Shown piece after piece: positions 5,894 through 8,914 of a DNA stretch of 11,082 bases. How positions within the stretch are numbered: position 1 is the first letter of the stretch; the number at the start of each line of letters is the position of its first letter. A model generated the notes under the pieces. The model was not told where the DNA came from. It did not search any database and was given only the letters and a program-made list of their open reading frames with translations. The position numbers and the translations under genes are program-made. The stretch comes from Trebonia sp. (GTDB lineage Bacteria > Actinomycetota > Actinomycetes > Streptosporangiales > Streptosporangiaceae), in the NCBI GenBank assembly GCA_030038035.1, contig JASHPP010000425.1, positions 1-11,082 on the forward strand, read 5' to 3'.

Positions 5894-6496
5894 TTACGGT
5901 AGCGAGGCTCGCCGCCGCCGCGGCAGCCAGCGGCGCGGTCGCGGCGGCGTGCGCACAAGCACCTCGCTCATGACCAGCAGCCCGCGGACCTCGACCACGG
6001 GAACGTCCGCGGAGGACGGCACCCACTTCACCGTCGCGCCCCGCTGGCGGCCGATCACTTCGGTCCCGTTCATCGCGACCTCGACGCCCGCCGGCACGAT
6101 CAGCCGCACCCGGCCGAAGAACGCGTACACGTTGAGCACGACGTGCCGGTCCTGCAGCATCGCCTCGCGCAGGTCGAGCACGGCCTCACCGCACACGGCC
6201 GAGCACGTCATGACCGGCGGGACCACCCAGCGGCCGTGCCGCTCCTCGGTGCTGAACACCGCCGCCACGACCTTCCCGTCGTCCAGCCGGACCGGCTGCT
6301 GCGCGGGCGGGGCCAGGTCGGAGGTCAGCCCAGCGAGCTCGCCGAGCGTGCGGGCGGAAAGAGCCGCCGCCATGCGTTCGGAATGCTCGTCCTGGGTAAG
6401 GCGGCCGTCGCCGAGCGCGGCGGCCAGCATGGCAATCACCCGGTCGCGATCTGAGTCGGACGCGCGCAGATCGCGTGGCGCGGGCCGTGGTGGCAT
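5894..6496 (-). CDS. DUF1707 and LiaF-like (cell wall-active antibiotic response) domain protein
   Basis: This is a 200-residue protein. Residues 8-60 are a DUF1707 domain (DLRASDSDRDRVIAML, GDGRLTQDEHSERM, ARTLGELAGLTSDL). Residues about 95-185 resemble the C-terminal domain of LiaF/DUF2154 proteins (VLDLREAMLQDRHVVLNVYAFFGRVRLIVPAGVEV, then VEVRGLLVMSEVLVRT), a right-handed beta stack. No membrane segment is seen and the C-terminus is Arg-rich. Proteins of this architecture are common in actinomycetes, and a role in envelope-stress signalling is suggested only by the LiaF resemblance. The start is supported by a leaderless -10 (TATGTT, 6 nt upstream) and by near-identity with the second DUF1707 copy, which starts at the same residue. 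Its N-terminal 73 residues match that copy at 61 positions. This is the intact member of the pair. Confidence 0.85.
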   Translation of the reverse strand: MPPRPAPRDLRASDSDRDRVIAMLAAALGDGRLTQDEHSERMAAALSARTLGELAGLTSDLAPPAQQPVRLDDGKVVAAVFSTEERHGRWVVPPVMTCSAVCGEAVLDLREAMLQDRHVVLNVYAFFGRVRLIVPAGVEVAMNGTEVIGRQRGATVKWVPSSADVPVVEVRGLLVMSEVLVRTPPRPRRWLPRRRRASLP

Positions 6497-6520
6497 GGTC
6501 AGAACATACCCTTTTTGCCC
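6497..6520. promoter_or_regulatory. Bidirectional promoter, left copy
   Basis: Leftward: TATGTT (complement of 6503-6508) ends 6 nt before the DUF1707 ATG. Rightward: TACCCT (6507-6512) ends 8 nt before the ATG of the glutamine synthetase remnant at 6521. The two boxes share the central TA. No Shine-Dalgarno sequence or clear -35 is present, so leaderless transcription is likely for DUF1707. The rightward activity, if any, would read antisense into the istB fusion gene. Confidence 0.5.
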
Positions 6521-6544
6521 ATGACCGACGTCCTGCGGCGGGCC
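6521..6544 (+). pseudogene. Remnant of the glutamine synthetase-like gene start (8 codons)
   Basis: ATGACCGACGTCCTGCGGCG and the next four bases (reading MTDVLRRA) match the first 24 nt of the intact gene at 7583 (MTDILRRA) at 22 of 24 positions. Similarity stops abruptly after this point, 12 nt before the stop codon of the istB fusion gene. The frame stays open rightward only as antisense of istB, so no functional product is expected. Confidence 0.7.
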
Positions 6545-6556
6545 GCCGGCCCGCGG

Positions 6557-7558
6557 CTACTGCTCGGGGCGCGCGCGGGCGGCCTGGACGAGCCGGTAGG
6601 ACTCGCTGCCGGTCTCGATGATCTGGGCGCCGTAGGTGAGCCTTTCGACGATCGCGGCGCAGAGCCTGGGGTCGGTGAAGAACCGGTTCCACTCGGAGAA
6701 CGTGGCGTTCGACGCGACGGCGATCGAGCGGCGTTCCTCGCGGTCGGTGAAGACCTGGAACAGCAGCCGGACGCCCGCGGCGTCGAGCTCGAGGTAGCCG
6801 AACTCGTCCAGGCAGAGCAGGTTGCAGCGGCCGTAGCGGGCCAGCACCTTGCTCAGCTGCCTGTCATCGACGGCCTCGGCGAGCTCGTTGACCAGGTTCG
6901 CGGTGGTCGTGTAGCGGACCTTCAGGCCTGCCTCGGCGATCGCGGTGCCGATGCCGATGAGCAGATGCGACTTGCCGGTGCCGGAGCCGCCGATCAGGCA
7001 CAGCGGCTGCCCGGCGGTCACCCAGGCAGGGTGGCACAGGGCGGCGACCTGCCCGGGCGAGACGTTGGGGTTGGCGGCGAAGTCGAAGTCCTCGATCCGC
7101 TTGGCGCGGGGGAAGTGCGCCTGCCGGACCAGGTGCCGCCTGCGCCGGGAGACTTCCTCGCCGAGCACGGCGGCGAGGAACTCCTTGTAGGTGAACCGCT
7201 CGCGCAGGGCGTAGGCGGCGGCTTCCTCGTATCGGTCGCGGACCGCGGGCAGGTTCAGGATGCGGGTCGCTTCCTCGATCGAGGCCACCGGGCTGCCCGG
7301 CTGCCGTTCCTCGGTGCGCGCCAGCGCCGCGACCACTTTGTCGTCCAGATGGACCGGCTGCTCGGCAGCCGGGGCCAGGTCGGCGGTCAGCCCCGCGAGC
7401 TCGCCCAGGGTGCGGGCTGAAAGAGCCGCCTCGGTTCGTTCGGAATGCTCATCGGGAGTGAGGCGGCCGTCGGCGAGCGCGGCGGCCAGCATGGCGACTA
7501 CCCGGTCGCGGTCTGAGTCAGACGCGCGCAGATCACGCGCCCCGGACCGTGGTGGCAT
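6557..7558 (-). CDS. DUF1707 - IstB-type AAA+ ATPase fusion protein
   Basis: This is a 333-residue protein made of two unrelated parts in one frame. Residues 1-85 are a DUF1707 N-terminus, 61 of 73 residues identical to the neighbouring gene. From about residue 91 it is an almost complete IstB/DnaC-like AAA+ ATPase of actinomycete IS21 type (VASIEEATRILNLPAVRDRY, FDFAANPNVSPGQVAAL). Walker A is GGSGTGKS (190-197), Walker B is LLCLDEF (D251, E252), and sensor-1-like SN is at 283-284. The typical end FTDPRLCAAIVERLTYGAQIIETGSESYRL is present. Only the first few IstB residues appear lost. IstB normally helps the IstA transposase choose targets; no istA is nearby. The ATG at 7558 is chosen because it equals the start of the paralogue and has TATCTT 7 nt upstream. 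A longer reading to 7723 would run antisense inside the divergent gene. The intact motifs argue for a working or recently working ATPase. The role is unknown. Confidence 0.85.
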   Translation of the reverse strand: MPPRSGARDLRASDSDRDRVVAMLAAALADGRLTPDEHSERTEAALSARTLGELAGLTADLAPAAEQPVHLDDKVVAALARTEERQPGSPVASIEEATRILNLPAVRDRYEEAAAYALRERFTYKEFLAAVLGEEVSRRRRHLVRQAHFPRAKRIEDFDFAANPNVSPGQVAALCHPAWVTAGQPLCLIGGSGTGKSHLLIGIGTAIAEAGLKVRYTTTANLVNELAEAVDDRQLSKVLARYGRCNLLCLDEFGYLELDAAGVRLLFQVFTDREERRSIAVASNATFSEWNRFFTDPRLCAAIVERLTYGAQIIETGSESYRLVQAARARPEQ

Positions 7559-7606
7559 GGTCAGAAAGATACTCTTCGCGCTATGACCGACATCCTGCGG
7601 CGAGCC
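7304..7606. repeat. Right copy of the duplicated ~305-bp block
   Basis: This is the partner of 6239-6544: it covers the first 85 codons of the fusion gene, the 24-nt promoter and the first 8 codons of the glutamine synthetase-like gene. The left boundary coincides with the DUF1707/IstB junction (TEER is shared, then HGRW versus QPGSP). The DNA between the copies (6545-7303, 759 nt) is almost exactly the istB coding part. Confidence 0.9.
7559..7582. promoter_or_regulatory. Symmetric bidirectional leaderless promoter
   Basis: The 24 nt between two divergent ATG codons are organised symmetrically. Leftward, TATCTT (complement of 7566-7571) is followed by 7 nt and the ATG of the fusion gene. Rightward, TACTCT (7570-7575) is followed by 7 nt and the ATG of the glutamine synthetase-like gene. 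The boxes overlap by the self-complementary TA at 7570-7571. There is no room for Shine-Dalgarno sequences, and -35 elements are not obvious in either gene's coding start. Confidence 0.6.
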
Positions 7607-8914
7607 CGCGAGGAGAACGTCTCGCTGGTGCGATTCCTGTACGCCGACCACGGCGGGATCGTCCGCGGCAAGGCGGCGGCGACGGCGCGGCTCGCCGAGC
7701 GGATCGACAGCGGCATCGGCCACACCCGGGCGATGATGGCGATGTCGATGATGGACGAACTGGCGCCCGTCGACGGCATGGGGCCGGTCGGCGAGGTGCG
7801 GATCAAGCCGGACCCTAACACTTTCGTCACGTTGCCTTACGCGTTCGGTGTCGCCGCTATGCTCTCTGACCAGGTAAACCCGGACGGCACGCCGTGGGAC
7901 GGGTGCGCGCGCACCTTCCTCAGGCAGGCGATCGCCGAGCTGGGCGCCGACGGGTACGAGCTGCAGGCGGCGTTCGAGCCAGAGTTCTCACTCGGCCGCC
8001 GCGACGGTGCAGATTTCGTGCCAATCGACGAAAGCCTGTGCTACTCCGCTACCGGTTTTCACCTAGCGCACGACTATACGATCGACCTCGTCGGCGCGCT
8101 GAACAAACAAGGTCTAGAGGTCGAGCACTATTACCCCGAGCTTGGTCACGGCCAGCAGGAAATACCCATCAGGCACGCGACGGCGCTGCGCGCCGCGGAC
8201 AACCACGTCCTGCTGCGCGAGACCGTCCGTGCGGTCGCGATCAGGCACGGGCTGTGGGCGAGCTTCGCGCCCAAGCCGCTGCCAGACCAGGCGGGCAACG
8301 GCGCCCACCTGCACGCCTCGCTGTGGTCGCACGGGGGTAACGCCTTCGCGGACCCGTCCGGCCAGTTCGGGCTGTCCCGGCTCGGCTACCACTTCGTGGG
8401 CGGCGTGCTCGCGCACCTGCCCGCCCTCGTGGCGCTGACCTGCGGGAGCGTGAACAGCTACCGGCGGCTCGCGCCATCGACGTGGTCCGGCGCGTACGCG
8501 TGCTACGGTCCCGACAACCGGGAGGCCGCGGTCCGCATCTGCTCGCCCGTCGGCGCGACCGGCTCGGTCAACCTCGAGCTCAAGCCGTGCGACTCCAGCG
8601 GCAACCCGTACCTCGCCCTCGGCGGGTTCATCCACGCGGGCCTTGACGGGATCCGCCGCAGGCTCGATCCAGGTCAGCCGCTCCTGGTCGATCCCGCCAC
8701 CCTTTCTTCTTCCGAACGGTCCCGGCTTGCTGTCATACGGCTGCCCTCCTCGCTGTCGGAGGCGGTGGACGCCCTGGCGGCGGACTCGCTGCTGATGTCG
8801 GCGCTCGGCCCGCTGCGTTCGGCGGCCTACCTCGCGGTCAAGCGCTCGGAGGCCGCGCACTTCGCCCGGCATGACGCCGGCTACGAGTGCTACCAGCACT
8901 GGATGAGGTTTTAG
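7583..8914 (+). CDS. Glutamine synthetase-like gamma-glutamyl ligase (GlnA-like family)
   Basis: This 443-residue protein has the full glutamine synthetase fold. The N-terminal beta-grasp part is LVRFLYADHGGIVRGKAA. The catalytic signatures are FEPEF (E132, E134), YYPELGHGQQEI (E186, E193), GNGAHLHASLW (H242), NSYRRLAP, PDNREAAVRI (R313) and LELKPCDSSGNPYLALGGF (E332). It differs from true GlnA. The E327 position of enteric glutamine synthetase, which takes up the ammonium proton, aligns to W301 (SYRRLAPSTWSG). The R359 position is K334, and the adenylylated Tyr segment is replaced by DPGQPLLVDPATLSSSERS. These traits fit the GS-like ligases that glutamylate amines such as polyamines or ethanolamine (PuuA, GlnA3/GlnA4 type), so the substrate is probably an amine other than ammonia. 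The start has TACTCT 7 nt upstream, indicating a leaderless message. It is divergent from the DUF1707-IstB gene. Confidence 0.88.
   Translation: MTDILRRAREENVSLVRFLYADHGGIVRGKAAATARLAERIDSGIGHTRAMMAMSMMDELAPVDGMGPVGEVRIKPDPNTFVTLPYAFGVAAMLSDQVNPDGTPWDGCARTFLRQAIAELGADGYELQAAFEPEFSLGRRDGADFVPIDESLCYSATGFHLAHDYTIDLVGALNKQGLEVEHYYPELGHGQQEIPIRHATALRAADNHVLLRETVRAVAIRHGLWASFAPKPLPDQAGNGAHLHASLWSHGGNAFADPSGQFGLSRLGYHFVGGVLAHLPALVALTCGSVNSYRRLAPSTWSGAYACYGPDNREAAVRICSPVGATGSVNLELKPCDSSGNPYLALGGFIHAGLDGIRRRLDPGQPLLVDPATLSSSERSRLAVIRLPSSLSEAVDALAADSLLMSALGPLRSAAYLAVKRSEAAHFARHDAGYECYQHWMRF

What the first reader, a model, noticed from the sequence alone, without database searches (positions are those of the whole stretch)
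6557..7558. In-frame fusion of a DUF1707 domain to an IstB AAA+ ATPase
The sequence directly shows one uninterrupted frame joining 85 residues of a DUF1707 protein to a near-complete IstB/DnaC-like ATPase with intact Walker A, Walker B and C-terminal motifs. IstB is known as the partner of IstA in IS21 transposition, and DUF1707 is an actinomycete domain of unknown role, usually found before LiaF-like or membrane parts. I do not know of this pairing as an established family. The inference is that a transposon ATPase was captured and put under a host promoter and N-terminal domain, giving a possible new regulator or helicase-loader-like protein.
Basis: partly seen in the sequence, partly recalled or inferred. 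Interest (0 to 1): 0.75.

Follow-up and report, generated by a model that had tools for sequence, protein, structure and literature searches.

The report
Transposon ATPase fused to DUF1707 domain
In some uncultured soil actinomycetes, a helper ATPase from a jumping gene has replaced the back half of a duplicated host gene, and the hybrid has stayed intact, so it looks like a transposon part turned into a host protein whose job is still unknown.

Summary
The fusion is real and conserved. Window 6557-7558 (-) encodes one open frame of 333 residues: DUF1707 (10-61), a linker, then essentially a whole IstB (94-333). Eight further protein clusters have the same architecture (68-86% identity), with IstB starting at the same residue. 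The nine form one clade among stand-alone IstBs.

It arose from a tandem duplication of a DUF1707-LiaF gene. The intact sister copy lies next door (5894-6496), and a 24-nt copy of the 5' end of the divergent glutamine-synthetase-like gene sits between the two. IstB replaced the LiaF-like half of one copy. Six genomes of the same genus have one DUF1707-LiaF gene near glpX and no IstB there. One named MAG (Trebonia sp. JOPF254) has the window's arrangement.

dN/dS between window and that MAG is 0.32; three neighbouring genes give 0.20-0.22. The MAG, which is incomplete, shows no IstA. ATP-binding and sensor II residues are invariant in 9 of 9, but a stretch after sensor I that IS21 IstBs conserve has drifted.

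Best reading: a domesticated IS21 ATPase, probably an ATP-controlled DNA-binding oligomer, targeted by DUF1707 to the partner or membrane site used by DUF1707-LiaF. Domestication is well supported; the function is inferred.

The parts
6557..7558 (-). DUF1707-IstB fusion gene, 333 codons
   Evidence: open frame; Pfam and NCBIfam; eight relatives
7376..7531 (-). DUF1707 (SHOCT-like) domain, residues 10-61
   Evidence: Pfam E 5.4e-19; pLDDT over 90 in most of it
7280..7375 (-). linker, residues 62-93, ending at the join of host gene and IstB
   Evidence: homology to DUF1707-LiaF ends here; low pLDDT in part
6557..7279 (-). IstB part, residues 94-333 and stop
   Evidence: Pfam, PDB sequence match from residue 94, Foldseek match to 8q3w
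6968..6991 (-). Walker A, residues 190-197 (K196)
   Evidence: K196 invariant in 9 of 9 fusions and 117 of 117 stand-alone IstBs
6803..6820 (-). Walker B, residues 247-252 (D251, E252)
   Evidence: D251 in 9 of 9 fusions; E252 in 6 of 9, D in 3
6665..6706 (-). post-sensor-I stretch, residues 285-298, conserved in IS21 IstBs but drifted in the fusions
   Evidence: 6 of 8 conserved columns changed in two or more fusions
5894..6496 (-). intact sister gene DUF1707-LiaF_C (200 aa)
   Evidence: Pfam; 80% DNA identity to the fusion's first part
6521..6544 (+). trapped copy of the first 24 nt of the GS gene
   Evidence: 92% identical to 7583-7606 at the same offset of 1062 as the duplicated DUF1707 block
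7583..8914 (+). divergent glutamine-synthetase-like gene, start codon 24 bp from that of the fusion
   Evidence: Pfam, NCBIfam
7566..7575 (.). overlapping TANNNT-type -10-like elements, each 7 nt from one of the two divergent ATGs (TATCTT on -, TACTCT on +)
   Evidence: read by eye; motif from PMC3898074; the sigma-70 scan found no site

Best explanation
This is a domesticated IS21 helper ATPase. In a Trebonia-type actinomycete lineage a DUF1707-LiaF gene, divergent from a glutamine-synthetase-like gene, was tandemly duplicated, and in the copy next to GS the LiaF-like half was replaced by an almost complete IstB. Shown: the duplication, the shared IstB entry point, the single clade, the related loci without IstB, and constraint on the frame. 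Inferred: the IstB half still binds ATP, assembles through its N-terminal and AAA+ parts and binds or bends duplex DNA without sequence preference, but no longer serves a transposase. Inferred with less certainty: the DUF1707 half hangs on the outside of that assembly and brings it to whatever DUF1707-LiaF contacts (its neighbour's product or a membrane-proximal site), perhaps linking envelope state to DNA.
For: Tandem duplicate with trapped GS 5' end; in G333 and G338 one DUF1707-LiaF gene stands 22 bp from the start of GS, in G338 a GS remnant. Six loci of the genus lack IstB; L001 has fusion plus parent copy in the window's order. Nine fusions, one clade, SH-aLRT 97, among 117 stand-alone IstBs, with IstB entering at the same residue. 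dN/dS 0.315 against 0.20-0.22 in three neighbouring genes, with similar dS. No IstA in the MAG. Nucleotide-site residues kept, a post-sensor-I stretch drifted. Full IstB fold. SHOCT-like domains, partly detected by the DUF1707 model, are predicted to anchor domains to the membrane (PMC11237479, passages).
Against: No expression or biochemical data. DNA for only one relative. The MAG is incomplete (4.2 Mb), so absence of IstA is weak; G336, without a fusion, also has none. The AAA+ part alone has pN/pS 0.484 (0.285-0.945), looser than the neighbours. Three of nine fusions have Walker B E to D and one has lost sensor I N, so ATP hydrolysis may be failing in some. The clustering of drifted columns is weak (p 0.028, window width chosen after looking) and the control ignores phylogeny. 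The DUF1707 tree does not resolve one origin. Only one of five AlphaFold models is good. A tested SHOCT domain did not oligomerise (PMC3581485, passages).
Confidence: 0.68

Rival explanations
1. Anti-IS21 decoy: the fusion keeps IstB assembly surfaces and poisons incoming IS21 elements by co-assembling with their IstB or capturing their IstA (transposon-derived immunity).
For: Assembly residues kept; the fusion-bearing MAG has no IstA match while 6 of its 7 genus mates have one.
Against: One incomplete genome; G336 also has no IstA without a fusion. The drifted stretch makes contact with IstA uncertain, though whether it touches IstA is not known to me.
Confidence: 0.13
2. Decaying insertion product: an IS21 remnant joined to a redundant gene copy by deletion, neutral and on its way out.
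For: A redundant sister copy exists; the AAA+ part is looser than the neighbours; E to D and N loss in some fusions.
Against: Nine intact frames at 68-86% identity, dN/dS 0.315 with bootstrap pN/pS below 0.53. Protein databases hide broken copies, however.
Confidence: 0.11
3. Active transposon part: the fusion still serves IS21 IstA in trans, or moves as part of an element.
For: Catalytic residues intact in the window copy.
Against: Same chromosomal place in two genomes; no IstA in the MAG; no inverted repeats bracketing the IstB part in the repeat search.
Confidence: 0.07
4. Assembly chimera.
For: L001 is a MAG; the origin of the window and of the other seven clusters is not named, and their contigs are short.
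Against: Nine different sequences, with source tags ncbi, jgi and ena, share the IstB entry point; two have the same flanks.
Confidence: 0.01

Closest known systems
IS21 helper ATPase IstB (PF01695, NF038214; IS5376 IstB, PDB 8q3w, 8q4d, 5bq5)
   Same: Full AAA+ and N-terminal dimerisation parts; Walker A K, Walker B D, Tyr170, sensor II equivalents kept in 9 of 9
   Different: DUF1707 in front, no neighbouring IstA, fixed beside host genes, conserved post-sensor-I stretch drifted, four residues of the connecting helix missing in six of nine
DUF1707-LiaF_C protein (PF08044 + PF09922), the window's 5894-6496 gene
   Same: Same N-terminal domain, same promoter-proximal sequence, tandem sister
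   Different: LiaF-like half replaced by IstB
Host-transposase fusion genes (domesticated transposases; recalled, no call)
   Same: A host domain joined to a transposon-derived domain and kept by selection
   Different: The captured part is the AAA+ helper, not the DDE transposase, and the host is a bacterium
DnaC/DnaI helicase loaders
   Same: Related AAA+ fold
   Different: Sequence models far below their cut-offs (DnaC 21.9 bits against 357)

Membership tests
IstB protein family | match to curated IstB models above cut-off | tested here: met
   222.6 bits against 200; P0006 235.1 and P0009 210.2; Pfam 185.6 against 24.1
IstB protein family | AAA+ nucleotide-site residues | tested here: met
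   met in the window copy; across fusions K196, D251, Y255, R306, R322 9 of 9, E252 6 of 9, N284 8 of 9
IstB protein family | N-terminal dimerisation part and IstB fold | tested here: met
   PDB sequence match from residue 94; Foldseek 8q3w over 243 columns
IS21 transposable element | istA beside istB | tested here: not met
   flanking genes are DUF1707-LiaF and GS; no IstA in G001. A stand-alone example, L090, has both
IS21 transposable element | terminal inverted repeats around the unit | tested here: inconclusive
   none bracketing the IstB part, but short imperfect ends could be missed
IS21 helper function | stimulates IstA | not testable with these tools
   needs a transposition assay
DUF1707 protein | PF08044 above cut-off | tested here: met
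   68.4 bits against 27.6
DUF1707-LiaF protein | LiaF-like C-terminal half | tested here: not met
   absent from the fusion, present in the sister gene
Domesticated transposon gene | fixed syntenic place in more than one genome | tested here: met
   window and L001 only; context of the other seven not available
Domesticated transposon gene | purifying selection | tested here: met
   dN/dS 0.315, one pair
Domesticated transposon gene | shown host function | not testable with these tools
   needs knock-out or biochemistry
DnaC-type helicase loader | best profile match to DnaC or DnaI | tested here: not met
   IstB models lead; DnaC 21.9 of 357, DnaI 23.5 of 228 bits

The most novel reading that the evidence does not exclude
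A bacterial host has turned an IS21 target-DNA-bending AAA+ ATPase into an envelope-linked DNA organiser: DUF1707 ties an ATP-gated, DNA-wrapping IstB assembly to the site where DUF1707-LiaF works, giving an IstB that functions without a transposase.
Probability: 0.25. Interest if true: 0.78.

Novelty: new variant of a known kind. Interest (0 to 1): 0.56.

Why it matters
Domesticated DDE transposases are well known (recalled). A transposon helper ATPase kept at a fixed host locus would show that the target-binding and DNA-bending half of a transposon can be useful on its own. It would also give a handle on DUF1707, a common actinomycete domain of unknown role, because its usual partner has here been swapped for one whose biochemistry is known. 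The locus still shows the steps of the event: duplication, trapped GS fragment, domain replacement and retained parent copy.

Tried and rejected
Viral contigs: no relative. Whole genome of the window: none held, so its own IS content could not be measured. Family-wide search: 126 of 341 genomes have a match at E <= 1e-20, with six candidates scored per genome and a capped list of matches; a fusion would rank at the top, and only G001 covers the model from position 1 without stops. Some rows reached into the DUF1707 columns through stop codons (for example G316), so 46 fetched loci were rechecked with the DUF1707 and IstB parts separately: only L032 and L036, both from the G001 contig, hold both. 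The DUF1707 tree, built to date the fusion against the parent gene, is unresolved. The sigma-70 promoter and terminator scan found nothing; the TANNNT reading is by eye. The PADLOC match 'DrmD' was set aside: the model matches the IstB part over nearly its whole length, so it is taken (from recall of what DrmD is) as an IstB filed under a DISARM name. The helicase-loader reading was rejected on family scores.

Literature: a full-text search for DUF1707 found 4 papers; passages of three were read, none on a fusion to IstB; PMC12654330 was seen in the listing only. IstB searches listed no paper whose title or shown abstract start reports an IstB fusion or domestication; of the papers listed there only PMC11208146 was opened (sections 6 and 9 read, passages elsewhere). 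So 'not in print' rests in an open-access library.

Full report
OBSERVATION. The frame at 6557-7558 (-) is open for 333 codons from an ATG at 7558. Pfam finds DUF1707 and IstB_IS21 in it, both far above cut-off, and NCBIfam names the second part an IS21 helper ATPase.

HOW WIDESPREAD. A protein search gave 1188 hits, 120 of them listed. Nine of the 120 carry both domains: the window's own (P0001) and eight others at 68-86% identity over 92-98% of the query. P0003 is the protein of L001. The others are untraced; judging by source tags and contig lengths they come from metagenomes or MAGs. A search with the alignment (1711 hits, 120 listed) gave the same nine and no more in the list. A search with the DUF1707 part alone listed 120 of 991 hits: five fusions, the rest DUF1707 with or without LiaF_C, so LiaF_C is the usual partner. 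In one-genome-per-species contigs 31 loci encode relatives of the query, and only L001, from a MAG named Trebonia sp. isolate JOPF254, is a fusion (L002 and L003, which match residues 61-333, show no DUF1707). Among 341 genomes of that MAG's family only the MAG itself showed it (capped list). It is a narrow trait that has nevertheless diversified.

ORIGIN. Window 6218-6504 and 7280-7566 are 80% identical at an offset of 1062. At the same offset the first 24 nt of the divergent GS gene (7583-7606) recur at 6521-6544, 92% identical. In G333 and G338 a single DUF1707-LiaF gene stands 22 bp from the start of GS, which in G338 is a remnant. The window thus holds a tandem duplicate of [DUF1707-LiaF + GS 5' end]. 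The copy next to GS has IstB in place of its LiaF half; the other copy is intact. Of the other seven genomes of the genus searched, six have the DUF1707-LiaF gene near glpX (within 0.2 kb in four, 1.6-2.0 kb in G339 and G335) and none of these six loci has IstB; the G337 contig ends 1.1 kb beyond the gene. G336 gave no close orthologue. L001 has fusion and parent copy in the window's order, with 19 nt between the fusion's stop and the parent's ATG; no trapped GS fragment is visible there. IstB enters at the same residue in all nine; in P0005 and P0008 the parent's HGR.VVP runs straight into SIEEA of IstB, while the linker has diverged in others (a 5-residue loss in P0003, an insertion in P0009). 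On a tree of 126 IstB cores the nine form one clade (SH-aLRT 97, no bootstrap) inside stand-alone IstBs. One stand-alone example, L090, has an IS21 transposase (202.1 bits, cut-off 160) next to its IstB. One event is the simplest reading; the short DUF1707 tree does not resolve it.

SELECTION. Window against L001: fusion dN/dS 0.315, pN/pS 0.345 (500 codon bootstraps 0.228-0.525); DUF1707a 0.223; GS 0.200 (384 codons); glpX 0.203 (227 codons). dS is 0.20 for the fusion and 0.23-0.30 for the other three, so it seems to have aged with them. The AAA+ part alone is looser, pN/pS 0.484 (0.285-0.945); the IstB N-terminal part is tight, 0.160 (0.044-0.397). dS between the two DUF1707 copies (0.28 and 0.38) is about that of the orthologues or a little above, which fits a duplication before the split of window and L001; the presence of both copies in both says the same.

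WHAT IS KEPT AND LOST. Residues were mapped by hand from IS5376 IstB through the alignment; the paper names Tyr35, Tyr170, Asn199 (sensor I) and Arg237 (sensor II) (PMC11208146). R306 as the arginine finger is recalled. All nine fusions keep Y124, K196, D251, Y255, R306 and R322; E252 is D in three; N284 is lost in one. Arg84 of IS5376, which joins two IstB decamers, falls on a non-arginine in the window (by eye). Of 107 columns at least 97% conserved in 117 stand-alone IstBs, 19 are changed in two or more fusions; in 300 random sets of nine stand-alone rows the mean is 0.55 and the maximum 5. That control ignores phylogeny, so it shows a shift but not its size. Six of the 19 lie among the 8 conserved columns of residues 285-298, 13 among the other 99 (permutation p 0.028 for a 13-residue window, width chosen after looking). 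Four residues of the helix between the N-terminal part and AAA+ are missing in six of nine fusions, scattered on the tree so that more than one change is needed.

STRUCTURE. AlphaFold2 with 55 rows gives mean pLDDT 87 for the best model (the other four 69-73); DUF1707 blocks 88-97, linker blocks 58-74. The IstB half matches DNA-bound IstB 8q3w (E 2.6e-18, TM 0.83 by target length, 243 columns), N-terminal part included. In IS5376 the N-terminal parts form the dimers, lie outside the AAA+ ring and contribute DNA contacts (PMC11208146, section 6). A domain put in front would hang outside the assembly and need not block it (inference).

MECHANISM. Shown: architecture, origin, constraint. Inferred: ATP-dependent assembly on duplex DNA, since the residues are kept. 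Inferred with less certainty: targeting by DUF1707. SHOCT-like domains, partly detected by the DUF1707 model, are predicted to anchor disparate domains to the inner face of the membrane (PMC11237479, passages). A SHOCT domain tested for oligomerisation did not oligomerise (PMC3581485, passages). A DUF1707 gene, rv0966c, is reported to matter for fatty-acid import in M. tuberculosis (PMC6368401, passage), and a mutant of its M. avium homologue was hypertolerant to three drugs (PMC8557931, passages). As the parent gene is next door in the same direction, the two products may share partners (inference). Expression: overlapping TANNNT elements at 7566-7575 lie 7 nt from each of the two divergent start codons, which would suit leaderless transcripts (by eye; motif from PMC3898074, passages).

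ALTERNATIVES. A decoy against IS21 is not excluded: the fusion-bearing MAG has no IstA match while 6 of its 7 genus mates do, but that is one incomplete genome and G336 also has none. A decaying remnant is unlikely given nine open frames, though broken copies would not appear in a protein database. A working transposon part is unlikely given the fixed place and missing IstA. A chimera is excluded by the shared entry point.

VERDICT. It is a new variant of a known kind (a host-transposon domain fusion), with a function that is open but testable.

Noticed in passing
2212-2348: 15-nt tandem array (about 7 copies) coding a degenerate PETAV repeat inside a protein weakly like the lipid-droplet-associated Rv1109c family (58.4 bits, cut-off 110), gene 2050-2571.
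   Followed up: no
7559-7582: Only 24 bp separate the start codons of the fusion and the divergent GS gene, with overlapping -10-like elements; the duplicate at 6497-6520 has the same layout, so a promoter-like element there points antisense into the fusion's 3' end.
   Followed up: partly
L092:4138-4646: In G338 the syntenic GS gene is a remnant (tblastn pieces 1-44 and 68-249), and in the G334, G335 and G337 loci no GS match was found next to the DUF1707-LiaF gene: the GS gene seems dispensable in this genus (contig end 1.1 kb away in G337).
   Followed up: no
6557-7279: PADLOC model PDLC02630, labelled DrmD, matches the IstB part at E 1.9e-33; probably an IstB model filed under a DISARM name, a possible source of false defence-system calls.
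   Followed up: no
7583-8914: GS-like protein is closest to gamma-glutamylputrescine synthetase (467.3 bits) but under that model's cut-off of 650.
   Followed up: no
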